A stretch of DNA of 64,000 bases from Daphnia pulex (Eukaryota > Arthropoda > Branchiopoda > Diplostraca > Daphniidae): NCBI RefSeq assembly GCF_021134715.1, contig NC_060020.1:8866001-8930000 (forward strand), in the 5' to 3' direction. Below, piece by piece: positions 2,100 to 47,800 of the stretch. The notes beneath the pieces are model-generated. The model did not search any database, was not told where the DNA came from, and worked only from the letters and a program-made list of their open reading frames with translations. The position numbers and the translations under genes were made by a program. Position 1 is the first letter of the stretch. Each line of letters opens with the position of its first letter.

Positions 2100-2545
2100 G
2101 TTTTCGAACTACCGCGGTATTACTGCGGTACTGCAGTACTACCGCTGGGTTCTACCGCGGTCTTACTTTTTTTAGTACTGTAACTACCGCAGTAACGCGG
2201 CAGATACTTTCGGTTTGCGGTCCCGGTACTTTTTTCTTAAAAATCGCCATCTAACGGCAAAGTATCGAGGCTTTTAAGTGGAGTTTTTTTTTTACAGACG
2301 ATTCAATTTTCAATGTCCCTCCTGCCTAGTGTTCTCACTCGACCAAAATCGATTGAGAAATGGTCGATTGATTAAGTATATAAAAAATCCTAATCGATTT
2401 CTAATCGACTAGAATTGTTACCATCGATTATAATCGATAAATTAATTTTTCTTTGCGTTATAGGATTAAAATCGATCAAAATAAATAAAATAAAAAAGTG
2501 TTAAATTCGATTATAATCTACCCGACTAAAATCGATTAAATTGAG
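2100..2545. repeat. Clusters of short palindromic motifs (ACCGCGGT, then ATCGAT)
   Basis: About 2107-2210 repeats near-palindromic ACCGCGGT/ACTGCGGTA words. About 2338-2540 repeats AATCGATT words in both directions. No open frame of interest runs through either block. They look like degenerate short tandem or foldback sequence; function unknown. Confidence 0.5.
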
Positions 2546-2879
2546 ATAAAAATTTCTCGAATTCTTAAAATTCATTGTTTAGTAACTAATTACGAAAACT
2601 TTTTGATGCTAAAAGACATTCTTCTTAATTATGCTCAAAGTAGTCGGTTGCATAACTATCGCTAGAACTAAGTTCACAATAATATTTCACATAAAATTAG
2701 AAGAATGAGTGAGATTCGTGCACCTCTGAGTTTTTTAACAAAAAATAGCATCACTAGGCCTATCTCAATTTAGTCCAATTTCAGATGTTAAACTAAAGGA
2801 AACCATTCTCAAAAACAGATGATTTATGGCGCGATAAGACAGTACTAATGGATCTATAGCAACTTTTGTGTGTGTGTTT

Positions 2880-3260
2880 TTTGGGTTGTATGCAGCCGTA
2901 GGCAGTACGAAAATGGTGATTTTGGTGAGCGTTCTCTACTAATTTTTTTGACCAGCCGCTAGTTGGTTTTGGACAGAAAAATCGCTGTCCTAGTTTCTGT
3001 GCAGTATGCTGTGCTTGGTTGGTGATCTGGAGTACTCCCTTATTGTACTTGGTTGGTGACTTGGGTACAAGAATAGGCCTAATAGTCAAGTGGTTGTCGA
3101 TTTTTTTCCTCCTTTTTCACTCGTCGGGAAAACAAAATAAGCTTAGGAAATCAGGGGAATTTGGTAAAACTAGGGAAAAATTGGAAAAAATCGGGAAATT
3201 TAGAGAAAAATCGGGAAAAATTGGGGAAAATTGAAAAAATTGGAAAAGTAGGGGAAAAAA
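2880..3260. repeat. Interspersed repeat fragment followed by GGGAAAAATT low-complexity tract
   Basis: The segment around 2960-3020 (GGACAGAAAA..CGCTG..CTAGTTTCTGTGCAG) recurs in diverged form around 25434-25472, which marks an interspersed repeat. From about 3130 to 3260 the plus strand is an imperfect GGGAAAAATT-type purine-rich tract. Similar tracts occur near 33620-33680 and 39470-39560. Confidence 0.45.
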
Positions 3261-4093
3261 TATTCCCATTTTTCCCTTGGTCCACTTACTGAAAGAGTCG
3301 GCAACCCCTCGGCTCCACGCGCGCCTCACGAGCGGAAAGCTCACGACACGTGGTGTGTATTCTTAGATATGTCCGAGATATGTCATATCAAGAATTTTGT
3401 TGTTGTTGTTGTGTTTATTGGATATGATAAGATCTTTGAACAGTTGGACTTATAAAAAACAGAGAAAAATTCATATTTCGCAATATACCTGCTGTGGCGC
3501 ATATCGTTAACGTATAAACTGATGGGAAACGCTTTTAAGGAAAAATCAATGTTAGGGGCTCCCATACAGTTGTAGTGATTAAGATTTCCATAGCTCTCTG
3601 ATTGAACCTTTTAATGTTTCTTAATTTTACTTTTTAGCTCAGCAAACAGACCTATTGATAATTCGCGCTTGCTGCGCCATCAAAATGGGAATCATGGTTA
3701 AATTGCGTCCTAAATAATGGCTGCGTAGCGGAATGACGAATTCCCACTTAATAATAAATTAGACTAGTAAACTTGGAAAAAACATGTAATATTTAATATT
3801 TACTATTTATAAATTTTATCTATGGTCATTTTACCTGCTGTTAACATATTTACTTATGAATAAAAAATAATTTTTTTGTAACTGAAAAATTCATTAAACT
3901 TGTATTTGAATTAACACTGCTGTCAGTGAACGAGAATATGGTATATTATTTGGGATTAATGGAAAAAATATGTAATATCACATAACTCGGTGAATAACAG
4001 GCACAGTATCCCAGGACGGTTTTATACAAGCATAATAATTGCGTCACACACAGATAAGAAAAGGATAAGTGACCATTCAATTACCATTTATTT

Positions 4094-7046
4094 TTATATG
4101 CACGTTAGGTTAAAGCACTCTATTGTATTCAATGAACAACCTCCACACCTATTACATGAACAAAATAGGCCTTCTCCACAAATCCCAAGACTATTCCATT
4201 TTCCTCCACAACGATGCCCTGGCCCCTGTTCATGAAGGCGAAAAGAAATTTAAAAATTTTTATTGTACATGATATTGATTGATTACATTTTCCAAGCATA
4301 AAACCATTGTAGGCCTATCTCTTTAAAAATAATTTTTACAGTTACATAAATACATGGCAATTCAAGCTACACTTGTATAGCCTACTTGTAAGCTCTTACT
4401 AGAATTCCTTCTTTTTGCGGCTCCTTGAAGCAAAATGTATACTAACAAAGTACTATCAACTGTCAAGGTCCCGACACTCCAGAGACTTTCGTTTTAATTT
4501 GTAAGTTTCTTAATCCTTATGGCCGTTTATGGCCAAAGTTAACGAAATTGTTTACCATCTTCTACTTTTGCCGAGTGTTATTATGTAGCTACTTTGGCAC
4601 CACCACTGGGGTGTCGACCAGGATGTACAAGGGTAGCACTCGATTTCTACTATATTCCAAAAATAGATCCGTGCTGATTTGGCAAAAATAAGTAATGCCC
4701 CCACATTAAGTTTACTGCGATGAAGCACTCCGTTTTTCATGTCTCAAGGACGACACCAAAGCTCGCCAAAGCCACTTCGGTTCCACCTCTAATGACCCCA
4801 TACAAAAATTTAAACTCACCAATACGATAATGTTGATATAAGTATCTCTCGACAAAAATATGATCTAATAACAGTATAGGAGATTTGATTAAAACAAACG
4901 AATGTGCGAATAAACCAGACTGGAGATAAAACCTAAACATTCTTGTTATCCTATTAAGACATCGGAAATAGTATACCTATACCACCAGGGATCACGTGTT
5001 TATGCAAAACCGGAGGAATGGCGTATGCCGTTAGAGCGGGAATCTAATATTTTGAGTTCATTATATACAACTATAATTTTTTGGTGATTCAAGTCGCAAG
5101 CAATAAGTACATACCGTTTGAACAATTTATAGTTGATTAATTTAATCGTTTAATAGTTATTTATCGAAATTGTAATTTTGTTTTTCCAAGATGTGCTTTA
5201 TTACACTAATTAAGTTGCATCGTCAGTCCATGTTGTTTATCATCGTTTTTTATTGTGTTTAGTGTCATTCCCCATTCGCTTACAAGAGGATCCTGGAGGT
5301 CTTAAAATTGATCCGAAGAGATTTTTCTGTGGGTTTCGTAATCATTTTATTTTTGATCGTGTGACGATCTTTTCGACACAGTTGCCAGTTTTCGATCGTA
5401 GATCGTCATCAATCGTCATAATTTTGAAAGTGCCAAAACGGTCATTTTTCCTCAATGTCTTATGCTGGTGATTGCCCCCAAAAGTCATATTGATTATTTC
5501 TCAGTGTTTAGACCATATTTTGTTTAAATTATTATTATTTGAAAATGTCTAGTTAAGTTTTTTTTGCATATGGGAAAAATTCATTTTCACTTCAATCTCA
5601 CAATCTGATGCAATAACAGGTACAACTGGGAACAACTAAAATAAATTTCCAAACCCACGCTGCTCGCTGTTTGCGCAAATTGGATTCATTTTTTAGAATT
5701 TGAATCCTTTGATTATTGTTCCATTATTTAACTATTATCTTGCAGGAAATCTAATTTTCCAAATTTTGTCAAAGTAGAAGTTTTGCCTGACGTTTTGTAT
5801 TCTCTATTTCCCATTTCTTCCTCGTCCAAGTTCAAAGATGCCTGTAGCACGTATCTTCTCCTCCATTTTTTTTCACACAAGGATAGCAGCATCCAGAAAA
5901 ACAGTAGGTTTTATATAATTTGTCGAGACTTATTTGTTTAGGCCACAAATTCCATACAAAGCGTGAGTAGCAAGGAATCTGTTTATATTGATTTAGCGCC
6001 AAGCCATTTGAAAGAATTGTTAAAAATTTACAATAGATGGCACACACAACCAAAACTTGGCTTGTAAGGTAAGTTATTGGACTTATTGAGTAAGAATGGA
6101 GCAGGAATGGAGGAATGAAGACGTCGCTGGAAAACGAGCATGAATTGTGACCCTTATGACGCAACTGGATATTGTAAAATTCAAAAGATTACAGAAAACG
6201 GTTCGGTTTGCAGGAAGCATACACCGTCGCACTCTGTACCCTGGTACGGATACCTACGTCACATATAGCTCACATAGGGAAGGGCGGGGCTTTTTCGGTA
6301 CCGTGGGTGAACCAGAACAGGAATATAAGACGTTTAAAAAAATTTCAATTTCTCAAAAGTTCAATTTGTCTCAGACACATATGGAAAAAAATACCGCATA
6401 CAAATAATAATAATAATCCTATACTATAAAAGAATAAGCCTTAATAATAATAATGCTACTATTAAAATACCCAAAACATCATCATCAAGCCATTTCGGTA
6501 TAACCTATAAATTGAGATAAAACTTTGGGAATTCAAAGGGAAATAAAGTAATGCGCTAACAAATAAAACACAATATACCGAGGTAACTACTCGAGTTACC
6601 ATCTCCACACTTTTGGTTATCACTTAACTAATAATAAATTTTTTAAAAAAAAAGCTAAACGGAACCATTTTGATTCAATAAATATATAAAATACGCAAAT
6701 ATAACCTATAATACTCTAGATTTGTAAGACAATGGGAAAAAAATTCGAAAGTATTACATACTTTTGCGCAAATATCCCGGCCACAGTAATCTTTCACTAT
6801 TCCATAAACACAGTTCTGAGGAGTGGGACAATCGGCATTGAAGTTACAAGCTGTGCAACGAGGAGCACTGTTGACACTAAATATGCAAATAATAAGACAA
6901 ATTAAAAATAAATTAGCTAAAGACTAAGATAGGTTATACTTGTGCATTATACAATAAAATTCCTACCGACTAAAACAAACACTGATAAATGCAAGGATGA
7001 GCAAATGCAATCCGGCGTTTTTAAACGGGCGAGAATTTTTCTGCAT
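4094..7046 (-). CDS. Neuroparsin (secreted Cys-rich neurohormone), 3 exons
   Basis: Coding exons on the minus strand are 7046-6967, 6876-6762 and 4225-4094, joined at canonical GT-AG sites with phases 2 and 0. The product is 108 aa. Residues 1-26 form a signal peptide (short basic start, then GLHLLILAFISVCF). The mature part has six Cys in exon 2, ending CGRDICAK, and eight in exon 3, which opens GPGHRCGGKW and contains GICGEGLFCSCNRCGGC. The joined CGRxxCAKGPGxxCGG run is the family signature of neuroparsins, the group that includes locust neuroparsin and mosquito ovary ecdysteroidogenic hormone, with IGFBP-like cysteine pairing. These are brain hormones acting on reproduction and metabolism. 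Most members have 12 Cys; I count 14. The second intron is 2.5 kb and shows no other gene. An AATAAA lies directly after the stop (4087-4092). Confidence 0.9.
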
Positions 7047-24246: not shown

Positions 24247-27200
24247 TTGACTGAGCTTATGATGTCCTTGTGCGAAAATTCAGCCTTACAGACTGATTTT
24301 GGAATTCAAATGCATCGTTTGGTTAAAAAAGGAGGTTAGTAAATACAACCATTTAATTTTTCTGCATTTGTGTTTGAAATAACGATATTGCTGTATGCAC
24401 AAGCTGATGTAAACAGGAAAACTATTGGAGGTCGCACCCCACTCATGATTGTCTGCTGGAAAAATAGAAGAGAGAATGTTGTGGGTAAGTGTGATGTAAT
24501 TTGTTTGTTTTTTTAAGGAAAGATGCAAGTGTGACCAAACGATGTGTCTTTTTGTAAATTCAACATATTACTAGTGTGAATAGTGTAGTATGGCTCAGGT
24601 AAACCGCTCTTCACTCACCCCTCTCCCATGGGTACGCGCCACCCCCCGCTTGACCCCCCTTCCTGGCCGGCTTGGGAAGCGCGTCAGCTCAGTAAAACTC
24701 AAAACTTTGAACGCGTTTTACTGGAATTTCCGCTCATTTGCACACCCTAAACTCAATGCTGAAAATGATCAGCGTAAGGAGATCTGCAACTCTATACCTT
24801 TCTTTTTTCGATATTAGAAAACCTGTCTTGCTAGGGAAGAGCACATCAATATTTTTAATATACCAGTATTGAATCATGTGTTCCCCTTCCTTATTCCTAG
24901 TTCTCCATCCTTATCCCTTAACTAGCCTCCAGATTGGTTTCATCCCTGATGTTGATATGCATTCTTATATCAATATACTAACAAAGGTTTTAAGTAAAGC
25001 TTTTTTCAGAGATGTCTTTTGGCTTAAAATAATGAAAATTCAATTTTAAAAATCAAATCAATCCTAAATTTTTTAAACTCCTTCCTATTGTTTTTATTGT
25101 AAGTTCGAATTACTTGCAGCAGTGAGCGAAGGGGAGAGAGCAGGATCACCATGTCTTTTTATTTTAATCTTTAATGATCAATAATCGGTTTGTGTAATCT
25201 ATAACAGGAAGTTTAGTCCATTTAGTTTTATTAAAAAAAACACCTTTTCAGCATTCTAAACTGCCTCGTTTCAAGGTGAGACGTAGCCTAGTGCTGACGG
25301 TGTGTATAGTTTTCCGTTTTTCAGCAAATTCATTTTTTCTTACCCTGAAAACTCCTTCGATTTACTCGGATATAAACTTAAGTTTCCTTTTTTTCTACAA
25401 ACAAATACTTGTAAGTAGTTTACCAACCCGTTTAGGACAGAAAATCACTGTTCTAATTTCCGTGCAGGATATTGTACCATGGCGTAGGGTGTTTGTAGCT
25501 TGATAATTCTCCAGCAATGGATTATTATCCTGCAGTTTAACTCTTTCTATAATCTCTTACTATTGATCTTAATCTTTCAGTGGCGTAGAGTAGTCAGGAT
25601 CTTTTTTTTGTTCTCTAGGTCACTGTCATAAATCTTGTGTAGAATTCGACGAACAAATAATAAAGTAACCTTCAAATCTTTTGAATATTTCTATTTAGAA
25701 GTCGTCAATATTTTATTGTCCTATGGTGCAGATGTAAAAAAAACAGACGATTTCGGGTGGAATGCATTGCAATTTGCTTGTCGGTAAAATCTCTGTAGAT
25801 TAGCATTATGCTTTTATAACACCCAGCTAATATAAAAGGTTGAGTACTAAGATATTTTTATTACATGAAAAGGTATAACTGTACACCACAATTGCCATCA
25901 ATTATTGATGTGTTATTAAAACATGGAATTGACGTGAACGCGAAAACCACAAACAAATGGAATTGCCTCCATCAACTTTGCAAATATAATTCTGGAGAAA
26001 AACTTTATCAAGTTATTGCAAGTTTAATAAGACATACTATAAATGTTAATGCTCAGACCAGCAAAAAAGACACGGTTAATAAGCAAATTTAAATATTTTC
26101 ATTAAATTGTACTTAAAATAGTGTAACATTTTACTCTTCATATTTAAAAAAATACCTTCAGGCTCTGCATTTACTTACCCGTTATTGTCGACGAGATTTT
26201 AGTGCAATTTTTCAATTGCTGATAAATGCCGGAGCTCGAGTCGATTTGGTCTCGTCCAATGCTGCATGTTTTATGTAAATATGCTGTCGGACTGGATTTG
26301 ATTGGTGTCATGGTAGACATTTAGAATTTAGAAGTACCTGATACTTTTTTTAAAATTTTTAAGAACAAGCTCTGCATATTGTTTGTCCCGTTACAGAATA
26401 ACTTGATTAACTCTTGTCAAACCATGGTTGATTGTTTCGATTACTATAAAGCAACAGCAATAGTCTATGCTGCCAGACTAGGTGGGAATATTCAAAATCG
26501 ATTTGTTAACTGTCTAAAACTTAGATGTGTTTTCCATTATGTAGGTTGTGCGAAAACCGTTAGCTTCCTTTTGCCATATTCGCATCATAACGTAATTGAT
26601 ATATTTGGGCAAAACGTAAGTTAGTTTATATTAATTATAATATTGCAGATTTATAGGTAACTAAATGTTTTTATTTTCTTATTCCTATTTAATTGTATGG
26701 ATAGGTTATCGATCATTTAAACGATGTTTTATCAAACTCTTTTCCCTTATGCATTTGCTGTCGAAGAATGGATTCCTTCCTTCCACCGGAACTACTTGAA
26801 AAATTGAGTACAAAGAAGCCATTTCATGCAAAATTGAGTGGTATTGATAGAGATGCGTTAGAGAGAGCAATACCAAGGCGCATCGATTACGGGTTTACTA
26901 ACACAAACCGAGAAACGTAGTGAACATTTCATAACTAAATTCAAATCGAACTTTTTAACACCAACAAGTTCACGATTCAATCAAGCCATGTAAGGCCAGA
27001 TTTGGGTTTAAATTTTCAGAAATCTTGACTGGGCGTCGGAACCTGTCTCAATGTACTCCATTTTATTCAAAATTTATCATAATGAAAGTATGTCGACTAA
27101 ATCGTTTGGGCATGTATTTTTAGGTAAATACATAGGAAAACTAACAATTGATATTGTTAGAAATAATTCAAGATATACAGTGAGCAACTAAAGTGTCCGG

Positions 27201-30200
27201 ACACCCGAGAGAACCTTATGGAAAACCGCTGTTTTCGCAAGACGAAAAAGTGGTCAAATTTTTATCCGATTTTAATGAAAATTTTTTCGTAGGTTCTCTC
27301 GGGTGCCAAGAACAACCCTAACGTTTTTTTGAATTTTAAAACAAAGGGAAGGGTAGGTTTTTATCCGAGGCAAAAGTGTCCGGACAGTAGAGAGGCCCAT
27401 ATGTAAATGGCCTTACTTTGACTCACCTCCACTCACCAATCGTGATTCACGCGTGCCATAGAGGAAATGCAGATTTTTTTTTAAAGACATTTTGCGTTAC
27501 TCAAGCACTTTTCAATGAGTCACAATCGGAACTCAAAGTAAGCCCATTTACATATGGGCCTCTCTACTGTTCGAGTGTCCGGACACTTTTGCCTCGGATA
27601 AAAACTTACCCTTCCCGTTATTTTAAAATTCAAAAAAAATTAGGGTTGTTCCTGGCACCCGAGAAAACCTACGAAAATTTTTTTATTTATATCGAATGTA
27701 AATTTGACCACTTTTTCGCCTTGCGAAAACAGCGGTTTTCCATAAGGTTCTCTCGGGTGTCCGGACACTTTAAGTGCCCACTGTTACCATAACAATGTTG
27801 ATTGTTAGCGATAAAACAATCGTCCTAACAACAATCGTCCTTAAAAACTATTTAGAAATCGCGGTTTGCGCCGTTCGATTTGCTGATAAGTTTTGAATAA
27901 GAGGATTCATTGCGACTCGCTCCGGCGCATTTCAAGATTTTAACAACCAAAAACCCTCCATTGGCATGATTGAGCTGTGGAATTGTTTTTTAATTTTTTA
28001 AATTCAGTATTCACACATGGTTTCAACAAAAGTTTACATAGTATTAAGCTTTATGTGAACCATGGTTAAAGAAATGGCTTTTAATAATGTCAATTTGGTC
28101 TAGTATTATTCAGCTACCTTCTGGAAACGCTTGGAATATTATCAAAGATGTATGGACGACAGATTCCGATCTTGATACAACCAAAATTCTACAATTTTTG
28201 TCTAAACACGCTCATCAAATGGACGATAAGCTCGGCAAAGTTGGTTGTTCTCAAAATCACTGTCATTGGTGTGCTGCCACAAATGCAGTTTGCGAGGTAT
28301 GCTTGTGTCCTTATATTCCCTTGTATGTTTGTGGATTTATCCGTGTCGTATAATATAGTTTACATTATCCCTGAGGACAGAAGGTTTAGGGGCCTTTAAT
28401 GCATCAAAAATCACAGTAGTCTGCTGAAAGACACATCTGAAAATCTTTATTAGGATTTTTCAACAATCAGAATCAAGAAAATCGCAAAAAATAATTAAAT
28501 CTATTTTTAAGCTAAAGTTTGTAAATGTAAGGTTTGAAAAAGTTTGATGATACACATCATTCCGTTAAGTTAGACATCAAACTACGTGACTCTTTCAACC
28601 TTTTGGAGTCATAAAAACGGTGAAAAGCGGCAATTTTTTTATTTTCGGTGTCAGCCTATTTGGACATTTTTCCGATGGTTCTAAATCTTAAAACAGATGA
28701 ACAGATGACAGCATTTTTATCAATACCCAACTTCAAAATTACCCTAATTGATTTACCTATGAAAACTAATTCTAAATTATAAAGGCGCTAAAGGGGTTTT
28801 ACTTCGCTTACCATCATTATTTTTCTTCAAAACTCGCACAGGTGATAGAAAACATGGTCAAGAGGGAAGATTTCATTTTCTAAAATACTCCCTCGGGAAA
28901 GGAACGGGGCGCTCCTTACTGCACCAGATTTTTTTTTAAAATAACAGCCATTGTTTTTATATTTCTATTAAAGTTTACATATTTTTAGACTTCAAAACGT
29001 TCAACCAACAAGCGTATGAGGGAACCAGCGGTTCCATTTCTTATCCTTTCCTATCTTAGACAACAAGAGCTATTAAATGGGAATATGTTATTAATCTTTG
29101 ATCATTAGAAAGTTTGTATAAAAGCAACGAAGAAATTATGCATTTCCCGTTTCGTTGTTTCAGTATGTCAACCAATTAGTGATCACCGTTGCCCATTTGG
29201 ATAACCGATTTCAAGGCGAAATAATTCAGTATGGAAGGTAAATATTTTGAATTTATTCGTGTCATATTTAAAAACTAGTTCACGACAAGGGAAATAAAAA
29301 ACTAATCAATTACACAGAAATTGGTTATAAGAAATATTTTTGTGGGATCACAGTTCATTAAGTTAATCAATTAATTTTTGGAATAAAAGAAACCATTTCC
29401 GGACATCTACAAAACTTGCCAAAAGTATAAGTATGGGTGAAGGAGCTTATGGGAAAAAACAATTTTTGGAACGATCTGGTTAATTCAAATCCTTATGGAG
29501 TACGATTTCCTTTAGGGGAGGGGATTGATATTAGCGTTCGGTAAAGCATTACTGGATTTTTTAGAATTTAATGATCACGGGATGTAATTTTTGTGACGTA
29601 TTTTGTGACGTAATTATCAGTTTTTCCGAGAGGGCCTAAAGGGAATGGAGCTCCTTTTTAGGTCTGTATTTAATCCAAAGATAACATTTTTATTGCTTGA
29701 TCCACCTTAACTAATTTCAATTCTAAAGCGGATTAAATAGGTTTTTCCTTTTTTCTCTCACCTCCGTTCTATACACACACTCTATTATTCTCCACACACA
29801 TAACTAACGAAGCATTTTTTAATTGGACCTTTGCAATGTAATTATTGTGAAGGTCAAAAGTAGCCCCATTTCCTAATGCACCTTTCCCATCCATATTAGA
29901 AATTCAAACAATGGAAGCGATATCACTCTTCCCATAAACGCTCTCACCGTACCTGTACTTTGCCTAGTGCACTAGATGCCTTCTGAAACTACCTTTTGTG
30001 CAAAGAACACTAAAAATGGCCCCCGAAGTATTTTAAAAAATGAAAATATGAAGGCTATAAAATGTGAGCCAAATGCTAATGTTGTTTAACGTGTTGCTCA
30101 ATAAGCTATTCATATATCTATTCATTGAAGTCCATTAAGATGTAATAATAAGGTTAGTGTTGGACAAACCGTACCCATATTAGACAGTTTAAGTTTTACC

Positions 30201-33200
30201 CGGTTATTTCCCAGTCTCCCAGAGCATGGTACCTTTTCCTTTAAAAACTTTTTTTTTAAGCTCTTCAGCTCACGAATTTAAAAAATCATGACTCTGAAAA
30301 TCAAAAATTTTTTTTCATTTTTTGAGTTTGGGGCGTAAAACTGGACAGAGTCTTAAATGGTACAATGGTAAAATTTATAAGAAAATTGCATAATAAAGAG
30401 ATAACAATAATGATATCGATTATTAAATGTTGATAATATAACAAAGTAAAACGGATTTTCTTACTTGAAAAAGAAAGCACATAATTTTCTCGTTTACCTC
30501 CTGCCGCAACCCTCAAAATAAAATTACATTACGGCCAACAATAAGACCTTAAAAAATTACTAATCATTTATTCATACTTATTAAAATCATACTTTTGCTT
30601 CAGTAATGTAGAGTATTGAGTTTCCTATGGAATTACGTATCAATTCATTTTATCACTAATCATAACTTGATATAACGGGTAACTTAGCTATGAAATTTTT
30701 AATTAATTTTTTTTCCTATTTTCTTTGTTTCTATTTGCTTTTATTTCTTAAATTACTCCAGATTTTTCAACCGACAATAAATTAAAGTACGAGCTACTGT
30801 TACACTTAACAGAAAAACAAAGTTAAAATTTAGATTTTTAAAACTATGTAGACTTCGCACTGTCCACTAAACGGTGTCCAACATCGGTTCGGTCTCTGTT
30901 AAAAGAGTAGGCTAACGTCCAAAGTTGCCAGTTCGATGAAATTGTGAAAAATCGATTTGACACGAACCAGTAACAGTTCTTGCATGGCGGATTATGGAGT
31001 TTCGCCCGTTTTAGTTTTAGTTTTTAATTTCCCCATTTCAGTCTTTAACTACAATTACTACCGAGGGGAAATAAATCTTAAAAGATTACCTGATAACTAA
31101 GGAATGTAGTTATCTAATTAAGAATAGCAACTGAAGATGACTGAAATGGTAAAATTAAAAACTAAAACTAAAACGGGCGAAACTCCATAAGCCGCCATGC
31201 GAGAACTGTTACTGGTTCGTGTCAAATCAATTTTTCACAATTTCATCGAACTGGCAACTTCGGACGTTAGCCTACTCTACTGGGTGTTGTGAATTTAATT
31301 ATTTATTAATATAAACATATTTCAAGTTCTGCCGAAAACTCAAAAATTATTGCACCGGACGAATTCGATTTCATGGTAGTATTGGCTAATTTCAAAGAAG
31401 ACGAAAGAAAATACTACGACGGAAAATACGTTGTTCTTTATGATGGTGATGAATCGTCGTCAATTTTTGAAAACGAGCAAGACGGAAGTACATCTTCAGC
31501 GAAATTATTGTATTATTTGTAAGAAGCATGAGGCAATTTCAGTAAATTAAATTCATAATAATTTTTTGTTTTGTTTTCTAACATAGTTACTTGCTCTTAG
31601 CGGATGCTGTGAACCGGATAAATCATCTCAACGTTTTATTCCACAATATAAGGTAATTCCATGAGATTGTAAAAATAACACTGCAATTTGGCAACTCTGG
31701 ACGATACTGAAAAAAGACATTTTAATTTCCATTTTTTTTTAATTTAAGATTTATCTAAATAAAAATCTAAAAAAACAGGGGAAAAATATAACCATCCACC
31801 ACAATAAAGAGCTAACGTAGCTGTATTTTCTAGATTAGTTTTATTGCATTTTCTGCTTTTAGCAGCCATGGCAGTTATGTCTAAGAAAGAAGCCAAAGTG
31901 AAGTTATTAACATAAGATCATCTCGGCTTTTCAAAGATATTTGTATCGTATATTATTCTTACCCAAATGAAAATGTTTAAACAATCACGTCAACTTTGGC
32001 AAGATACAAATACTACCCAAAATTTCCGGACAGATAAAAGCAGTTTACGGAAAAACGCGTAAAAAAATAAACCGCTAACACGAACATAGATTCGAGCTTT
32101 AACAAGCGATCCGCCACCAAAGGACCGTTTTGGGCAGTTTTGATTTTGCGGAAATCGTCGCTGGGGGGTCGAAAAACTAACAAATAGATGTTTTTTTTGG
32201 AAAATTTTGCACTAAGTCAATTGGTAAAATCCGCAATCGCTTCTTTTGTAGTTTGTAGTTTACAAAAAAAAATTAGGGGGGGAGGCTAAATTTTGACTTT
32301 TTCTTCTTGTCAACTGCTACACCTAAAAATAATCTAATTGTTTTAAAATGATGGGAAAGCTTCAACTGATCTTCAAACTTTTTCAGGGTTTTTCAATACT
32401 CGGCTTAGAAGCCGAGATATTAACGATTAAAATTTTGAAATAAATCTAGTCCATTCTTCGTTTTTTGGCCATCCCAGCCTTCATCCTATAAGCCACCTAG
32501 CCCTGGCCATAACAACATTTTCCCCCTCTTTTCCTTTAGGGTCTGTTGGTGACCACCCCCTTTTCCCTGGTGTAGGCTGACGTTAAGAGGGAGACCCCAA
32601 CAAAAATTAAGAATTCAAAACAAATTATAATTTTTTCTTTGAACGATGTTAGAAGTCCTTACTTAAGAATTCATTGTTATTTTAATAATACAGCAGTGGT
32701 TGTTTCGTCATAAAAGTCTTTAATCAATATGTTTTTTTCAGTTTTTCAGAAACTTGCGTTACGTTAGACTGCTTCTATAGAGGAAAGGAAGTCATTCACC
32801 CAGGACAATACGTTTTTAAATTAAGCATTGACATAACTGTTGGAGTAATTGGTTCACAAACCGATACAGTTCCTCTGCCTTTGCCTTCATCATTTCGCCT
32901 AGTAAATAGCTCTAATAAGGATGATAAGTACTTCTTGGTACCACACCGACAAGTTGCTGGAAGTGAAATCAGCGGCTGGAAACCGTCTTTTCCTACAGTG
33001 GAACGCAATGCATTTCACGCATTTGATCCCGTAGTCACTCGCTGTTATTGCCTTTTGAAATTATTTGTTTTACTTGTTTCGCATATTGAGGAATGTTTTG
33101 GGAAAACAAAACCTTCGTCGTATGCAATTAAAACATGTTTATTCAATTACGTAAAAAAAAATCCTCCACCTTGGGAAAAACGATGTATAGTGAAACATTG

Positions 33201-33411
33201 CATAGGAATTTGCACAGAATTTCTTGATACAAAGGAAAAAATCAATTCTTTTTTTGAAAAATCTCTCACAGTTTACGTGATTAAATATGAAAGTAGATAT
33301 GTTATGAACAAAATCAGAGATCGACTAAAGTCGGCACAAGAATCATCTTGTATTTCATCAAATATTTGTTCATGCAAAGGACTCAATATTTCTAATTGTA
33401 TTTTATGTTGA
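24247..33411 (+). CDS. Ankyrin-repeat / Mab-21 (cGAS-like receptor) nucleotidyltransferase fusion
   Basis: Exons: 24247-24334, 24404-24484, 25699-25783, 25873-26074, 26162-26312, 26364-26481, 26545-26615, 26705-26916, 28104-28296, 29164-29237, 31327-31518, 31587-31652 and 32742-33411. Splice phases agree except within 26162-26312. The first seven exons give about five or six ankyrin repeats (GADVNRKT..GRTPLMIVC, GADVKKTDDFGWNALQFAC, GIDVNAKT..WNCLHQLC, NVNAQT..DTALHLL). A linker leads into a Mab-21-type nucleotidyltransferase: G-S (codon split by the 29237/31327 intron), x11, E-F-D (31361-31369), and the third acid in KLSIDITVGV (Asp at 32830). The C-terminal Mab-21 helical domain ends in a Cys-rich tail. 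In cGLRs this fold makes cyclic dinucleotide messengers after sensing nucleic acid. No vertebrate-type Zn thumb is visible. The frame slips near 26255. The upstream start is uncertain. Confidence 0.8.
27178..27783. mobile_element. Palindromic Tc1/mariner-like MITE (606 bp) in the cGLR intron
   Basis: Long inverted arms of ~230 bp start CAGTGAGCAACTAAAGTGTC at 27178 and mirror at 27783. The phrases GTGTCCGGACAC, AACCTTATGGAAAACCGCTG and AAAAGTGTCCGGACA occur in both arms. CAGTG termini and a left TA flank fit Tc1/mariner (the right flank is TTA). The centre is near 27480. The 124-codon frame at 27418 is only a translation of one arm. It lies between the exons ending at 26916 and starting at 28104. 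Confidence 0.85.
30904..31278. mobile_element. MITE family M2, copy A, in the intron that splits the cGLR active site
   Basis: Arms of ~130 bp, starting AGAGTAGGCTAACGTCC on the left and mirrored on the right, include AGTTGCCAGTTCGAT and AGTTTCGCCCGTTTTAG. The centre is near 31090. The same family occurs at 40963-41678. It has no coding capacity and sits 49 bp before the acceptor of the exon at 31327. Confidence 0.85.
32096..32605 (+). repeat. Interspersed repeat family R1, copy 2
   Basis: Closely follows the copy at 15352-15885 block by block, including the CTCGGCTTAGAAGCCGAG palindrome at 32399-32416 and TTCATCCTATAAGCCACCTA. It lies in the last intron of the ankyrin-cGLR gene. Confidence 0.7.
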
Positions 33412-34089: not shown

Positions 34090-35810
34090 AAATTTATGAA
34101 AGATTCGTGGACCAATGAGCCGACTTTAACACGGATTCGACGGAAACGCCCCTAAAGACTGCCTTAGAGGCTGTGGCTCCCTGAGTCGAGTATGCTGAAA
34201 AAGAATCCGGCTTCAACCCGGCATCCGAAAGGCAAGACTTGAGCCAGTGACTTTAAAGAGTAAATTCGTTCAAAAGTCGGAACACACGCGTTACGGAAAT
34301 ATAATATTCCAAACAGCCCACCGGGCAACAAAAGCCATTCAAACGGACAGAACGCATGATTTGAGAAGGCCAGCCAGACGATTGAGCATTTTTAAGGCGA
34401 GAAAAATAGAATTAATCGGCAAAATCTGAAATTGAAATTGAAGAATGAGAAATCAAATATAATTCAGAAACACCCAAAAGAGTTATAAAAGCTAACATTG
34501 CAAATTTTTTTGATAGGGTAACAAGGCTTAAGGAGCCGCTCGGGCTTAAAAACTGAATTGGATTAACGACGACATCTGGGTAAGGTAATTGTAACAACCT
34601 TTCAGAAGCTACAACACCAATAGATGCTGTCCAAGATTGTAACCATCGATGGGGTCACGGTCATCCATAGCATAGAACGATGGAGGTTTAGGGAAGCCGC
34701 AGAGAAACCGACAGGAAATAAATTAGACAGATAGTCCATGATATCGGCTAGAGAAGGCGATAAGGTATTCCAATGTTTTTGAGGACACCAATCCATCCAT
34801 CGCTTCCAAACAAAGGACTTCTAATCCTGATAACCTCCAGATGCTGAACTGGAAACTCCTCCACAGCAACCTGTGCGGCTCTAAGGAATTAATAAGAAAA
34901 GGATTGAATAAAAAACGTGCTGAATATCTGTAGACACCTGCAAAAGAAAGAGGACAACGGTTGCGACCGCTATAAAAGAAACACCAGGACCACAGCTACC
35001 CGATCAAGTTTAATTTTTTTCAAACAAAAAAGGATTAAGGCAAAGGGAGGAATAGCTTTAGTCTAGCATAGCCTTTCAAATCAGCTCAGTTCGAAGTAAA
35101 GGCATTTACTGCAAATGTTCAAGGTTGTGGCAACCAAGAAACAAAATCAAGTTAAGCGTTTCAAGCGGAAGCAAAAAGGTCAATGTCATTTGCCAAATAT
35201 TTGCCAATTTTCCGAATACATCCGACAAGAGCATATAGTTACTTGGGCCTAAAGAACTCGAGATTCTTCGTCAGCGACGATGTTGGAGTTTCCTGATAAA
35301 TGGGGAGAAAAAACATAAATATTAAGGACTCCACACCACAAAACGGCAATTTCAATCAGCGTTAGAGAACGAGTCTCGCCGCATTTGTTAATATAAGCGA
35401 CCGCAGTGGAATTATTCAATAAAATATGGATCGAAATATTAGTCGACGAAGCAGTGTAAACCTGAAGCGCAAACAAAGCGCCCAACAGCTTGATTTCATT
35501 AATATGAGTGATTTGTCTTCCAAGACCATGGCCCCAAGACCCTATCACATCACAGACATCTCCGCACCCATGAAAGGAGGCATCGGAGAAAACAATCAAA
35601 ACGTGGTTGGTAAAAAAAAATTTGCCATCAATCAAAGTCGCTTCTAGCATCCGGTGTGAGCGAGACCAAAATATCTGAATCGGAATGTTAACACTGGCTA
35701 CCTTTTTTACTGGCAACCGATATGGGTGGCACTGACTACCTATAAGCAACGACACCTGCAACCCAGCAAAGATGGCAACAATGGTCAGAGTGGCTACCTT
35801 TTTTCCAATA
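34090..35810 (-). mobile_element. Decayed DIRS-type retrotransposon, minus strand
   Basis: A 170-codon open frame (35761-35249) is an RNase H domain: VFSDASFHGCG, the HINEIKLLGALFALQ helix, and NNSTAVAYINKCG. It ends with a degenerate HLSGNSNIVADEESR, which in intact copies reads HLPGxxNxxAD. After a gap come tyrosine-recombinase pieces: LADIMDYLSNLFPVGFSAAS at about 34740, SLSLVTLSKKFAMLAFITLL at about 34520, and ATASKAVFRGVSVESVLKSA at about 34160, where the catalytic HxxR is replaced by YSTQ. Several stops interrupt the recombinase. The RT part upstream is missing or unrecognisable. This is a second, opposite-orientation member of the class at 0.2-1.9 kb. Confidence 0.8.
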
Positions 35811-36654
35811 TAAATTTTAAAAAAATGTGTTGGTAAAAATTGTTAGCAACCCTTTGGGTTGTTGGATTGCGAGAAGATATGAAGAATAAATAAAGATTTA
35901 AAGGATATAAAACTTAAACAATTAATCTAAAATGAAAAATCTGCTCTGTAATTCATCTTCGACAATCACAGTTTTTTTCAAACAATGAAATCAATGTGGA
36001 AAGATACGAAGCAAAACTCTAGAAAATAATCCTTTAAATTAGTTAATCAAAATCCAAAAAGATTTAGTCACACTTCTTATATTGCCTTCGTGTTTTCATT
36101 TTCTCTTTTAACAACATTATCAAGAAGCCACCGTAACAGTCCACCGAGATGGATGTAAAAAAACCGAAGTGTTGCGTGAAAGTGCGGAAACCAATTGGCA
36201 GTTGAACAAGAAGATCGGATTAGGGAATTGAATGTCTCAACATTCTGTATAGATAAAATTAGTGATTGGATAGGCTATGATTAAAAAAAAAGTATATGTA
36301 CACGCCATTTCCTTCACGTGGTCGGCAGTCGTTCTCTCTCTCTTTCTCCACGTGGAGTTGGTCTCGTGGTCTATCTGGTTGCTAAGTCTTTCTCAATACT
36401 CGTGCGGACGAGAAAACCTGGGATTGATCTCGTTTATGTTCATTTATCATCGGATGGTTCTTATTTTTGAGGATTCATCTCGATTCACATCACTCAACTT
36501 TGAGTCTCAACGTCCATCTTTTTTCATCATCGATCCTTGCTTTTATCTCTATGCCAAGAAAGAGAAGCAGTGGAATCAGACGGGCAATACAGGCTGCTGT
36601 GTACGAGCAAAATAAAATCTTCGGCAAGAAGCCAACGCACAATTTGGAGAAGCC

Positions 36655-41844: not shown

Positions 41845-44800
41845 TTATTTCGAAGCTGAATTATTTTCTCTCAAATGTTGTACTCTTTTACGATCTTGGT
41901 GTCCTCGAAATCCGGATTGAATTTTTGTCGCAGCAGCATTTTCTAGTTCAGCTGAAGTTACGTTTGATCTGGCAGCTGCATTTCGAATTAAATCGTCGCA
42001 CTCATATACTATTGTTTTTTCCGCACTAGTATTATCAAGTTCAATTTCATCTGCTTTCTTTGCGTACGTTAATTCAGCTTTGAAATGTTTAACTCGTTTG
42101 CGATCTTGATGTCCTCTATAACTCGCTTGAATTTTTGTGGCAGCAGCGTTTTCTAGTTCAACCGAAGATACTTCTGGTTGAGAATGTTTAAGAGCATATT
42201 CATCAGAATTAATCTGAAGCGTTCCTTGAACATGCTGATTTTCTTCATTCTCTATTACTATATTTTCGGCTACTTGACCTTTAAGATGCTGTACTCTTTT
42301 CCGGTCTTGATGTCCCCGATAACCAGCCTGAATTTTTGTTGCAGCAGCGTTTTCTAGTTCAAACAAAGTTATTACTTCTGGTTGAATAGGTTTAAGAACG
42401 CAATCGTCGGAAATAAACGAAATAGATTCTTCATCATAATGTTTTTTGTCATGATCTAATACTTGATTTTCTGCTTTTTGATCTTTAATGTGTCGTACTC
42501 TTTTCCGATCTTGATGGCCTCTATAACTCGCTTGAATTTTTGTTGCAGCGTCGTTTTCTTGTTCAAACGAGATTGTTTCTGGTTGAGTAGGTTTTAGAAC
42601 AATATCGTCAGAAATTAACTGAATAGATTCAACTGATTGATTTTCTTTTTTGTCTAATACTTCATTTTCTGCTATTTGACCTTTAAGATGTTGTACTCTT
42701 TTCCGATCTTGATGCCCCCGATAACTAGCTTGAATTTTTATTGCAGCAGCGTTTTCTTCTTCAAACGAGGTTACTTCTGGTTGAGTAGATTCAAGAACAT
42801 AATCATCAGAAATAAACGGAATAGATTCGTCATCAGATTGATTTTCTTCAATGTCTAATGCTTGATTTTCTGTTATTTGATCTTTAAGATGTTGTACTCT
42901 TTTCCTATCTTGATGTCCCCGATAACTAGCTTGAATTTTTGTTGCAGCGGCGTTTTCTTGTTCATATGAAGTTACTTTTGGTTGATTCGATTTAAGAACA
43001 TATTCATCGGAAATAAAAGGAATAGATTCTTCATCAGATTGATTTTCTTCATTATTGTCGAATACTTGATTTTCTGCTATTTGATTATTGACTTTAAGAA
43101 GTTGCACTCTTTTCCGATCTTGATGTCCCCGAAAATTAGCTTGAATTTTTGTTGCAGCAGCGTTTTCTTCTTCAAACAATAAGGATACTTCTGGTTGTGT
43201 AGATTTAAGAACATAATCCTCGGAAATAAAAGGAATAGTTTCATTATCATATGGATTTTCGCTATTGTCTAACATTTTATTTTCGGAAATTTGATTTTTA
43301 AGATGTTGTACTCTTTTCCGATCTTGATGTCCCCGATATCCAGCTTGAATTTTTGTTGCAGCGGCGTTTTCTACTTCAATCGAAGTTATGTAAGGTTGAG
43401 TCTGTAAAACAAAGTCGTCAGAAGAATTAAGGTCTGTGGTTTTAACAAGTTGAGTTTTATCAATATCCACAATATCAGGATTCGTAATATGATCTTTTAA
43501 TTCTCTAACTCTTTTACGATCTTGATGTCCCCGATAACCAGCTTGAATTTTTGTTGCTGCAGCATTTTCTACTTCAATCGAAGTAAAATTCACTTGATTA
43601 CTGTGAATATCTTTGTAAGAATCATTCAAATTAGTTGTTTCATCAAATTGAAGAGTTTCAGTGATAACAGCTGAATTGGGCTGTATACTGTCATAACGTA
43701 ACTGATCTTTTAAATTTTTTACTCGCTTCCGATCTTGATGTCCTCGATAACTAGATTGAATTTTAGTGGCAGCAAAGTTTTCTTGTTCAGTTTCTAGTAG
43801 ATTTTGAGTTTCCTCTATGTATTCGTCGGAATCATTTTGAACAATTTCTTTCTCAAAAAGTCGAGGTTCATCGATGCCCACTGCATCAGGGTTGGTTTTT
43901 TTATCTTTGAATTGTTTTGTTCTTTTACGATCTTGATGTCCCCGATAACTAGCTTGGATTTTTGTTGCAGCAGCGTTTTCTAGCTCAATTAAAGTTAGAT
44001 TATGTGGGTTATGTTGGATGATTTCGTGAGAACCAAATAACTTTGTTGCTTCGTCAAACTGAACTTCGTCGCTCTCCAACATACCAGTTGCTGTTATTTT
44101 ATCTTTCAAATGTTTTACACGTTTTCTGTCTTGCTGTCCACGATAACCAGCTTGAATTTTTGTAGCGGCGGCATTTTCTATTTCGTCGTTTAAATGTTCA
44201 TCCTCTTCATTGTTCGTTACCTGATTTTCGTCAAACTGATTTTGCATTATTTTTAAACGTTTTCTATCTTGATATCCTCGATAACCAGCTTGAATCTTCG
44301 TTGCAGCTGCGTTTTCCTGCTCTTCCTCAAAGTTCCGCTTTATCTTAGGAATTTCATCTTGTTCCAGGTAATTATAATTTAAGCTTTGCGGCGAGTTTTC
44401 TTTTGGTTGCCAAGATGATTCCAAAAGGCCATCGTTGGTAGTTTCATTGGATTCGACATACAACTCAAAAACAACCTCTGGATCAGAGGTTACAATTTCG
44501 TTTACCGTGTTATCCACTATCGTAGTAGCACTACTATTTTTTTCTTCGTCAGAATTTGTTTCACTTTCCTGGTTATCTTCGATGTTTGATGTGTCTGGTA
44601 TGGTTGGACTATTGGGAATGTCTGGTATTGAAGATATAATAACATAAGAATCAATAAGCTGAATGTTATTGATTTCTTCTCCATTAGGCATGGATTCTTC
44701 TGTAACGTCATTGACTTCGTTGACATTGGCTAATAGTGCCTGAGCAATTTCTTCGTCATTATCATTATTTTGAACTTCGTTGATTTCCCCTTCAGGAGTA

Positions 44801-47800
44801 TTTTCTGAAAAAGGTATAGTGGAGTTAGGTTGAGGTGTATCCGTCATAAATAAAGCAACTGAGGCAATTGTTTCGGTAACGCCAGCAAGAGCTTCAGATA
44901 ACCCGTCGTCATGATCATTATCCTCTAATGATTTTTCCGATGTAGATTCCAATGCAGAAAACTGATTCCCTTCCATAGAAATATTTCCCTCTGGATTATT
45001 GTCCGTTGGTTCGGAGGTATCGTCGTTTGATTTTACAATCTCTTTTTGATCAGAGGCGAGGTTCAAATCTTTGCGCGTCTTGTAGCCACGGAACGAAGAT
45101 TGAATTTTGATGGCTGCAAGATGTTGCTGTTCTTCTTCTAACTCAATGTCTTTCTGCAATTTGCTCCAGATTTCTTCTTCGTCATCATTAGATGCATCTT
45201 GGTCAACCTCTTCAAACAAGGCGTTATCGTCTTGATCTACTGCGACGTTGTTTTCAATCTCTTTTAAATCCGTGTCATCATGGCTATCTCCCGACTCAAC
45301 GTTTTGTTCATTAGTGTCCTTCAAATGATCCTCATTATCACTAGGGGTAATCATGTTATTCTCCAGTAGGCCTATTGTCGTTTCATCATCTAAATTTGTT
45401 GTATTTTCTGTGAGGTCAGCCAAATGATCGCTCAAGTTAGAAACGGTTTCTATCTCTCCTAGTACACACGGGGCCGATTCTGCTGAATTTTCTTCTTGTT
45501 GTGGTGCGGCATCTTCCTGTTCAATCCATTCTAAAATGCTCTTTGATATTTCAGAATTGGTTTCTGCTTCGGTTATTGTTGTGTCATTTTCTTCTTCGTC
45601 ACTTCTTAACATGTTTGCTGAGGCGTCGTAATTGTGCACTTCTTCGGTTTCTGAATTATTTTCTTGACATGCCATAACATCTGAACTTAAAGGTTGGTTA
45701 AGATCGTCATCTTCGTTCAATTGAGGACTTGAGATTTTGTCTACAAATGGACTATGATTAGAGTCGGACCATTCGTTGTCTTCGGTCACTACAGCTCTTT
45801 CATCGGTAGGTATGGTCTCACCCATGTCCGGCGGATAAATGTTTTCCTCTTGGAGATCGACACTAGGCTCAGGATTTTCTGTCAATGGAGCATTTTCCGA
45901 AATTTCATCATCGCAATGACTTTCTAATCCCGATGGGTCATCTTGCATTTTTTCAAGTTCAAGTTTATCCTCTGGCATTTCAATATTTGAATAATCAATT
46001 TGTTGAGAATCTTCTTCCGTTAAAAGATCATTTTCGATTTCAATGTCAGCTTTTTCTACATACTCATTCATTTCAGGACTGCCTGTTTTTTCAAATTCTT
46101 CCTCGAAGCCGTTGTCTTCTTGAGATTCAGCTTCCTTGTCACTTGCTTCGCAATTTTCTTGATCCAGTTGAGCACCTTCTATTGCCCCAGTTGAAAGTAC
46201 TTCCGTCGCTTCTAAAACAAAGTCCACGGTATTGTCGGAATTAATCATGTTTGATTGAGGAATGTTGTCTCCGTCCTGTTCATTAATTTCATCTATCGGA
46301 TCAACAGGATCAGTAAAGTCTTGTTCTATTAATGATTCAACAAACTCTTCCGTTTGCGCCTCTAAATTTTCTTCTGTGCAATTAATTTCATCGTCGGTCC
46401 TTCCTTCTAAAACTTCTTCCAATACACCATTATCCACGGAGATCTTTTCAACCGATTCCGAGTCAATTACATCGGTATTGTATGTACAAGCTTCTTCCCC
46501 ATCTGTTTGAACGTTATCATCAATTTCTTTTGTTTTGTCTTCTTCATTGCTTTCTTTTAATTCAATTTTTTCGACTTCCCCCTCGATATGCTCGTTTTCA
46601 AATTCTTCTTCCTTGTTCTCAACCAAATCTACCGAGGGCGTGTCAATTTCCGTATTTTGGTTAGTTGCCATTATTTCTCTCCTTGCTCGATGCCCTCGAT
46701 ATGCTGACTGTATTTGAATAGCAGCAAGATTCATCTCATCTGTTACCTAGAAAAAGATTTGAATCCATTAATGGTAGAATGGAAGAACTCAACAAATTCA
46801 ATGTTCCCTTACAGGTTATTTCTCGAAAATAGAGTGTACTAAAGTGAGTCTACAGTATCTACAAAATAATTAAATTAAACTTACTTCGTCAATGGGTACT
46901 GATGGTAGATCCGGTTCTGAATCGAGAATGTTTGAAGCCGAAGTAACTCGGCGGTTCACATCAAATGAATCCGCTGCTTCTTTAAAATCCTCCGAATTCT
47001 TGGGGATTTCTGATGAACCACTGGTTGGTCTACTTAATGATGTGAAAATCACACTTCGAGGAGACTCCAGAGTCTTCGAAGTTACAATAGCAGCTATCGT
47101 CACGGGCGAAGAGTCGTGATCTGACATGGACTCGTCTAAGGTTGGCGGAGGGGACATATCACCTTCCCTTTCAGTTTTCTCTTCGTTTAGTTCCAGCAAC
47201 TCTTTTTCAAAATCATCCGTTTCTTTAATTTCTTCATTGAGTTGGTCGTTGTCACTCCTTCTAGCTGGACTTGTGCTAACCGAGTTTCTCTTTATTGATA
47301 AAGAAGTTGCAGCATGCGATCCTGGAAAGGAGTTTGGATCGGCTAAATATGAAAAAAAAAATTATAATAAATTATTATTATTATTTTAAAAAAGGATTAA
47401 TTATGACCGGTTGTGTGAAACAAATAGTACTGATAGTACCATACTCAGAATTTCCTCTTCCCATCATGTTTTTTATGTTTTACTTTATATCGATAATTTG
47501 TCAATCAAATAGATTGTAAGCGATGCATATGTGTTTGTGCACATATTGCACATATTATTATTCAATGTTTCCCGAATTAAGTGCAACTTGTCCCTCAAAA
47601 TTCCTTTTAGCAAAATCAATTTAGAAATAACTAGCCTAGTAAAATAGTTCGCACAGGAGTTTCAAATTTTTACGCTATGTGCGGAAGACTATTACAAACA
47701 TACTGTATCAAATCAAGACAAAAGTTTTTTTTACGATTATTTTTATTTTTCGGGACTTCCGTCGAACTGCCTAACTTGGGACCGTGTCCAAGCTGGGAAC

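What the first reader, a model, noticed from the sequence alone, without database searches (positions are those of the whole stretch)
24247..33411. Ankyrin repeats fused to a catalytically intact cGAS/Mab-21-like nucleotidyltransferase
Thirteen exons with mostly agreeing splice phases join an ankyrin array to a Mab-21 fold. The G-S-x11-E-F-D spacing is the same as in human cGAS (G212-S213...E225-D227), and the third acid sits in KLSIDIT (compare SVDIT in cGAS). Known cGLRs of flies and vertebrates are short single-fold enzymes. An ankyrin sensor or scaffold on the enzyme would suggest protein-triggered rather than, or in addition to, nucleic-acid-triggered messenger synthesis. The architecture may define a crustacean cGLR group.
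Basis: partly seen in the sequence, partly recalled or inferred. Interest (0 to 1): 0.92.

Follow-up and report, generated by a model that had tools for sequence, protein, structure and literature searches.

The report
Water-flea ankyrin–cGAS-like receptor gene
A crustacean gene joins a protein-binding ankyrin array to a cGAS-like enzyme of the kind that raises immune alarms in animals; it belongs to a small family in this genome, the architecture is already reported in corals, and this copy may have a reading-frame break in its ankyrin part.

Summary
Thirteen exons at 24247-33411 encode ankyrin repeats, a Cys/His linker and a cGAS-like nucleotidyltransferase (single-sequence match to cGAS 1.5e-5; family profile 3.1e-17) with G-S, E, D and the third D in place. 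Seven further family loci were found in the genome; in three of the eight, ankyrins and enzyme share one uninterrupted frame of 757, 780 and 861 aa, so the fusion does not rest on splice guesses.

Two corrections. The exon 5-6 junction fits only with a frame change inside exon 5 (about 26255-26262), or with a weak donor at 26239 or whole-exon skipping, each of which drops ankyrin sequence; this copy may be damaged. Its enzyme half keeps 54 of 57 family-invariant residues. And ankyrin-cGLR fusions are in print, including in a coral (PMC9980059).

New here: a crustacean family with C-x-W-C, often with H-x-H, beside the enzyme (7 and 5 of 8); Tyr, Cys or Val before Gly-Ser in 7 of 8 where the published pattern has Gln/Thr; one member without catalytic acids. 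STING is encoded. Activation by a protein partner is plausible, untested.

The parts
24247..24334 (+). exon 1: family N-terminus (SLCENS) and start of the ankyrin array; in-frame ATG ATG inside, true start not fixed
24404..24484 (+). exon 2: ankyrin repeat
25699..25783 (+). exon 3: ankyrin repeat
25873..26074 (+). exon 4: about two ankyrin repeats
26162..26312 (+). exon 5: ankyrin sequence with an internal frame change at about 26255-26262 (stop TAA 26276-26278 in the entry frame); alternative end at 26239 with a weak donor
   Evidence: single place in the genome
26397..26481 (+). exon 6: ankyrin sequence
26545..26615 (+). exon 7: last ankyrin repeat (GCAKTVSFLL)
26705..26916 (+). exon 8: linker with LCICC (26747-26761); aligns with the C1 paralog
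28104..28296 (+). exon 9: linker with HAH (28207-28215) and CHWC (28261-28272) ahead of the spine helix
29164..29237 (+). exon 10: spine helix and catalytic Gly (29233-29235)
31327..31518 (+). exon 11: catalytic Glu (31361-31363) and Asp (31367-31369), APDEFDF
31587..31652 (+). exon 12: nucleotidyltransferase core
32742..33411 (+). exon 13: third catalytic Asp (32830-32832, SIDIT) and C-terminal lobe, stop TGA
27177..27784 (+). inverted-repeat element inside intron 8, dispersed in the genome; not part of the product
30904..31278 (.). inverted repeat (140-nt arms, 96%) inside intron 10; not part of the product

Best explanation
This is one member of a family of ankyrin-cGLR genes in a Daphnia-like genome (eight loci found). 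Shown here: six of eight loci pair ankyrin repeats with a cGAS-like nucleotidyltransferase, three of them in a single open frame; seven of eight keep G-S, E, D and D; STING is encoded in the same genome. Inferred: the ankyrin array binds a protein (a pathogen product or a host partner) or holds the enzyme in place; binding is relayed through the Cys/His linker, a possible zinc knuckle directly ahead of the spine helix, to the nucleotidyltransferase; the enzyme makes a cyclic dinucleotide that acts on STING. In the window copy the enzyme half looks intact and constrained. Its ankyrin exon 5 has a frame problem, so full-length protein is doubtful unless exon 5 is shortened or skipped (both keep the frame) or the change is an allele or assembly effect.
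For: Single-sequence match to cGAS 1.5e-5; profile of 8 members 3.1e-17 to cGAS and 2.4e-14 to cGAS-like receptor 1; profile of 5 of the 8 members 9.1e-18; PADLOC oligonucleotide-cyclase model 0.00035. Ankyrins plus enzyme in one frame in L019, L020, L024; L024 joins the family by profile comparison (97.2%, 4.1e-11). Window linker aligns with these paralogs. 54 of 57 invariant residues kept. C-x-W-C in 7 of 8. STING_LBD match 6.7e-8, above cut-off.
Against: Frame problem in exon 5 and three weak donors in the window copy. No transcript evidence. Two of eight loci (the tandem C10 pair in L021) show no Pfam ankyrin match in their open frames. The enzyme half of L024 alone finds no cGAS in the PDB at E up to 5. 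Pfam scores the enzyme below cut-off in the window and does not list PF03281 for L019, L020, L021 or L024 at E up to 0.1. All eight members fail a literal reading of the published active-site pattern. Ligand, metal and product are untested.
Confidence: 0.55

Rival explanations
1. The window copy is a recently broken pseudogene of this family: the frame change in exon 5 ends the protein inside the ankyrin array, and the enzyme half is still preserved only because the damage is young.
For: In-frame stop at 26276 in exon 5; frame-keeping splice alternatives have donors of 4 of 6 or less and drop ankyrin sequence; three further weak donors; no second copy of exon 5 in the genome.
Against: The enzyme half is open over five phase-matched exons and keeps 54 of 57 invariant residues. 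A donor at 26239 (3 of 6) is no weaker by that count than the model's own donor at 26312 (3 of 6), and skipping exon 5 also keeps the frame. A small difference could be an allele or an assembly error.
Confidence: 0.35
2. A nucleic-acid-activated cGLR in which the ankyrins only localise or dimerise the enzyme.
For: Sp-cGLR1 is a dsRNA sensor in print, while the ligand of Sp-cGLR2 is unknown (PMC9980059). The other seven enzyme domains have calculated pI 7.57-8.97.
Against: The window enzyme half has pI 6.67 and net charge -1.3. The Cys-rich stretch of cGAS (its zinc thumb, a recalled name) falls in an insertion relative to this family in the alignments.
Confidence: 0.3
3. A Mab-21-type developmental protein rather than an immune receptor.
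For: Mab-21 and cGLRs share homology; PF03281 matches weakly; Mab21L1 appears at 0.96 in the single-sequence PDB search.
Against: The family profiles do not list Mab21L1 at E up to 1 or up to 10; the genome's own Mab-21 gene scores 19% probability (0.0012) against the family, while L024 scores 97.2% (4.1e-11). No tree was built.
Confidence: 0.05
4. Two neighbouring genes, an ankyrin gene and a cGLR gene.
For: Intron 8 is 1187 nt long and holds a mobile element; its donor at 26916 is weak.
Against: Three paralogs have both halves in one open frame; exon 8 and 9 sequence aligns with paralogs across the junction.
Confidence: 0.04

Closest known systems
Ankyrin-bearing cGLRs (Stylophora pistillata and others, Li et al. 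2023, PMC9980059)
   Same: Ankyrin repeats fused to a cGAS-like nucleotidyltransferase (passages, section 5).
   Different: Here a crustacean family; C-x-W-C/H-x-H linker motif; Tyr, Cys or Val before Gly-Ser in 7 of 8. Whether the coral proteins share the linker was not checked (no sequences or supplements seen).
Vertebrate cGAS
   Same: G-S-x11-E-F-D, third D in S-[IV]-D-[IL], C-terminal lobe; sequence match over about 290 residues.
   Different: Ankyrin array at the N-terminus; the Cys-rich insertion of cGAS is absent and a Cys/His cluster lies ahead of the spine helix instead.
Mab-21 / Mab21L family
   Same: Homologous fold family; PF03281 weak match.
   Different: Sequence closer to cGAS.

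Membership tests
cGLR (cGAS-like receptor) | Homology to cGAS across nucleotidyltransferase core and C-terminal lobe | tested here: met
   window residues 58-349; profile positions 53-352. Not met by L024 alone; L024 joins only through the family profile.
cGLR (cGAS-like receptor) | Published active-site pattern h[QT]GS-X8-20-[DE]h[DE]h-X50-90-h[DE]h (PMC9980059 section 5) | tested here: inconclusive
   0 of 8 members match my literal coding. The window has Y for Q/T and 99 residues for 50-90. The cGAS chains printed have N before T-G-S, so they break the literal pattern too.
cGLR (cGAS-like receptor) | Acidic residues of the active site | tested here: met
   E, D, D present in the window and 7 of 8 in all; lost in the C5 copy
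cGLR (cGAS-like receptor) | Predicted structural homology to known cGLRs | tested here: inconclusive
   single-sequence model of exon 13 only, mean pLDDT 38.4, unusable; no fold search run
cGLR (cGAS-like receptor) | Synthesis of a cyclic nucleotide | not testable with these tools
   needs biochemistry
Ankyrin-cGLR fusion | Ankyrin repeats and cGLR domain in one protein | tested here: met
   one frame in 3 of 8 loci, joined exons in 3 more (window among them), no Pfam ankyrin match in 2
Mab-21 family (PF03281) | Score above the curated cut-off | tested here: not met
   19.8 bits against 24.1

The most novel reading that the evidence does not exclude
Crustaceans built an NLR-like receptor family out of cGLRs: an ankyrin array that recognises proteins, a metal-binding C-x-W-C/H-x-H hinge that relays binding, and a cyclic-dinucleotide synthase output to STING, with at least one catalytically dead member (C5) acting as decoy or regulator.
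Probability: 0.2. Interest if true: 0.75.

Novelty: new variant of a known kind. Interest (0 to 1): 0.5.

Why it matters
If ankyrin-cGLRs sense proteins, cGAS-STING signalling in invertebrates is not only a nucleic-acid alarm. Daphnia is a laboratory animal, and three family members hold ankyrins and enzyme in one genomic frame, so domain constructs can be cloned without solving splicing (L024 has an early in-frame Met; the L019 and L020 frames have no Met ahead of their ankyrins and probably need a 5' exon). The linker motif and the changed residue before Gly-Ser may let other surveys find members that curated models miss: of five family proteins scanned, none reaches a Mab-21 cut-off.

Tried and rejected
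Two-gene reading: set aside because of single-frame paralogs. Splice choices that avoid the exon 5 frame change: listed (introns of at least 45 nt, ending in exon 6 at 26481); all have donors of 4 of 6 or less and drop ankyrin sequence, as does whole-exon skipping. Structure prediction of exon 13 alone: mean pLDDT 38.4, not used; no fold search was run. A viral-contig scan with alignment A1 failed as too variable and was not pursued. Three weak hits on C10, C2 and C9 read by eye as broken 3' copies of the C5 gene and are not counted as members. C4:3000328, a Mab-21_C match in an 822-aa frame, was not compared with the family. Full-length L019 and L024 against the PDB gave capped lists (60 of 279 and 60 of 344 shown) filled by ankyrins, so they say nothing on cGAS. 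NCBIfam gave ankyrin effector models far below their cut-offs and other weak matches, no cGLR model.

Paper searches. I found no paper on ankyrin-cGLRs in Daphnia or crustaceans in their listings: (ankyrin, cGAS-like, crustacean) held 0 papers, (cGLR, Daphnia) one paper, an immunoglobulin-superfamily review seen as a listing, one paper on mTORC1; one search held 36 papers of which 20 were listed. One search held 4 papers; only PMC9980059 was opened (passages; section 5). PMC4202315 was seen only as the start of its abstract in a listing.

Full report
What is there. The window is C4:8866001-8930000 of a 133.2-Mb, 13-contig assembly. Size and contig number fit a Daphnia pulex assembly; that is recalled and not tested. 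On the plus strand, 13 exons from 24247 to 33411 join to a protein of about 724 residues, two of them X at the exon 5 frame change. Seven introns are 63-89 nt and five are 867-2089 nt. The ankyrin half matches Pfam Ank at 1.5e-19 up to the frame problem and Ank_2 at 6.8e-29 when read across it. The enzyme half (397 residues) matches cGAS chains in the PDB at 1.5e-5 by single-sequence search, over residues 58-349; Mab21L1 is listed there at 0.96. Pfam Mab-21 matches below its cut-off; a PADLOC oligonucleotide-cyclase model matches at 0.00035.

A family, not a single oddity. Searching the same genome with the enzyme half gave 17 matching places; three further searches with other members added no locus. 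They resolve into eight loci: the window; L019 (C6); L020 (C10); two tandem copies in L021 (C10); L022 (C1); L023 (C5); L024 (C6). Three more places (C10:4194453, C2:7641776, C9:4359167) read by eye as broken copies of the 3' end of the C5 gene and are left out of the counts. L019, L020 and L024 carry ankyrins and enzyme in one uninterrupted frame of 757, 780 and 861 residues, with Pfam Ank_2 matches of 4.5e-26, 1.1e-16 and 5.6e-19. Only L024 has an early in-frame Met; the other two probably have a 5' exon. L022 and L023 carry ankyrins upstream, in L023 in the same frame as the start of the enzyme. The two L021 copies show no Pfam ankyrin match in their open frames. So six of eight loci have ankyrins, three of them in one frame with the enzyme. 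L024 is the most distant (17-22% identity to the others): its enzyme half alone finds no cGAS in the PDB at E up to 5, and the window query found it at only 0.0042, but it joins the family by profile comparison (97.2%, 4.1e-11), where the genome's ordinary Mab-21 gene does not (19%, 0.0012).

The enzyme. The profile of the eight members lists 42 PDB sequences at E up to 1, of which 40 are cGAS or cGAS-like receptors (two of these entitled only 'Uncharacterized protein'), best 3.1e-17. A profile of five members, leaving out the second L021 copy, L023 and L024, gives 9.1e-18 and 40 of 45 at E up to 10. Neither list contains Mab21L1. G-S-x11-E and the third D are in place in seven of eight. The eighth, C5, has S and H where E and D should be (LFAP-DSFHF across an intron that I placed by GT-AG and alignment) and T for the third D: a natural contrast showing that retention is not automatic. 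The window copy keeps 54 of 57 residues that are invariant in L019, L020, the first L021 copy and L022; gapped columns were skipped. When each of those four is left out in turn, with the window among the references, they keep 54 of 66, 60, 60 and 67. Against the same 57 columns the second L021 copy keeps 48 and C5 keeps 37.

The linker. Between ankyrins and enzyme, seven of eight members have C-x-W-C directly before the spine helix, and five of eight have H-[SA]-H shortly before that. Five of the seven full-length members examined have L-C-x-x-C after the ankyrins (the second L021 copy was not in that set). In the five-member alignment the only invariant cysteines before the G-S motif, within the part aligned, are those of C-x-W-C. 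A zinc knuckle is the natural reading; it is inferred, not tested. The Cys-rich stretch of cGAS (its zinc thumb, a recalled name) appears as an insertion relative to the family (alignments).

Trouble in the window copy. Exon 5 enters in one frame and runs into TAA at 26276-26278, while recognisable ankyrin sequence (LHVLCKYAVGLDLIGVM) continues in the next frame from 26262. With the frame change allowed, all 12 junction phases fit; without it, the exon 5-6 junction with the 26312 donor does not. Splice sites were picked with phase and paralogs in view. Canonical alternatives that keep the frame exist: a donor at 26239 (3 of 6 to GTAAGT, the same count as the model's own donor at 26312) joined to 26397 drops the end of exon 5; donors with 4 of 6 drop most of it; skipping exon 5 also keeps the frame. 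Exon 5 has no other copy found in the genome. I cannot tell a true mutation from an allele, an assembly error or an altered splice pattern.

How it most likely works. Shown: domains, motif, collinearity, family, presence of STING (three pieces at C6:5057870-5058605, best 6.7e-8, two above the cut-off). Inferred: the ankyrins bind a protein, the linker relays, the enzyme makes a cyclic dinucleotide, STING responds. The near-neutral window enzyme half (pI 6.67) and the missing Cys-rich insertion speak mildly against DNA binding of the cGAS type, but the other seven are more basic (pI 7.57-8.97), so nucleic-acid activation stays open.

What is known. Li et al. 2023 (PMC9980059; [quoted passage not shown] The architecture is therefore not new. 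The words Daphnia, crustacea and arthropod do not occur in that main text; its tables were not open to me, so these genes may already be in its list. Against its active-site pattern all eight members fail in my literal coding: the residue before G-S is Y, C or V in seven (T only in the second L021 copy), and the spacing to the third D exceeds 90 in four of the seven measured. The cGAS chains themselves break the literal pattern (N before T-G-S), so this is a lead and no exclusion.

Limits. No transcript data, no second crustacean genome, no tree, no usable structure model. The claim of a crustacean-wide group was not tested.

Noticed in passing
window 41845-46746 (-): A 1633-aa open frame with many IQ calmodulin-binding motifs (Pfam IQ 4.7e-77, 15 stretches).
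   Followed up: partly
window 27177-27784: Inverted-repeat element in intron 8 with many dispersed relatives: 85 matching pieces listed, itself included, a lower bound.
   Followed up: partly
window 30904-31278: Inverted repeat with 140-nt arms, 96% complementary, in intron 10.
   Followed up: no
L023 (C5), about 2504-5487 (-): Ankyrin-cGLR paralog that lost all three catalytic acids, a possible pseudoenzyme; three broken copies of its 3' end lie on C2, C9 and C10.
   Followed up: partly
window gene, L022, L023 against L019, L020, L024: Intron positions in the enzyme half differ: 0 of 4 window introns mapped share a column with the 2 of L022 or the 2 of L023, while three paralogs have no intron within the fusion frame. 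Intron gain or loss seems frequent here.
   Followed up: partly
L020 5431-7846 (-): Next to the C10 ankyrin-cGLR lie two overlapping long open frames with ankyrin-like repeats; one has an NC/LRAT-like stretch (recalled resemblance; not scanned).
   Followed up: no
window 34412-35842 (-): Open frames resembling a DIRS-type retroelement (recalled resemblance); no Pfam match at 0.01 for the two pieces scanned.
   Followed up: partly
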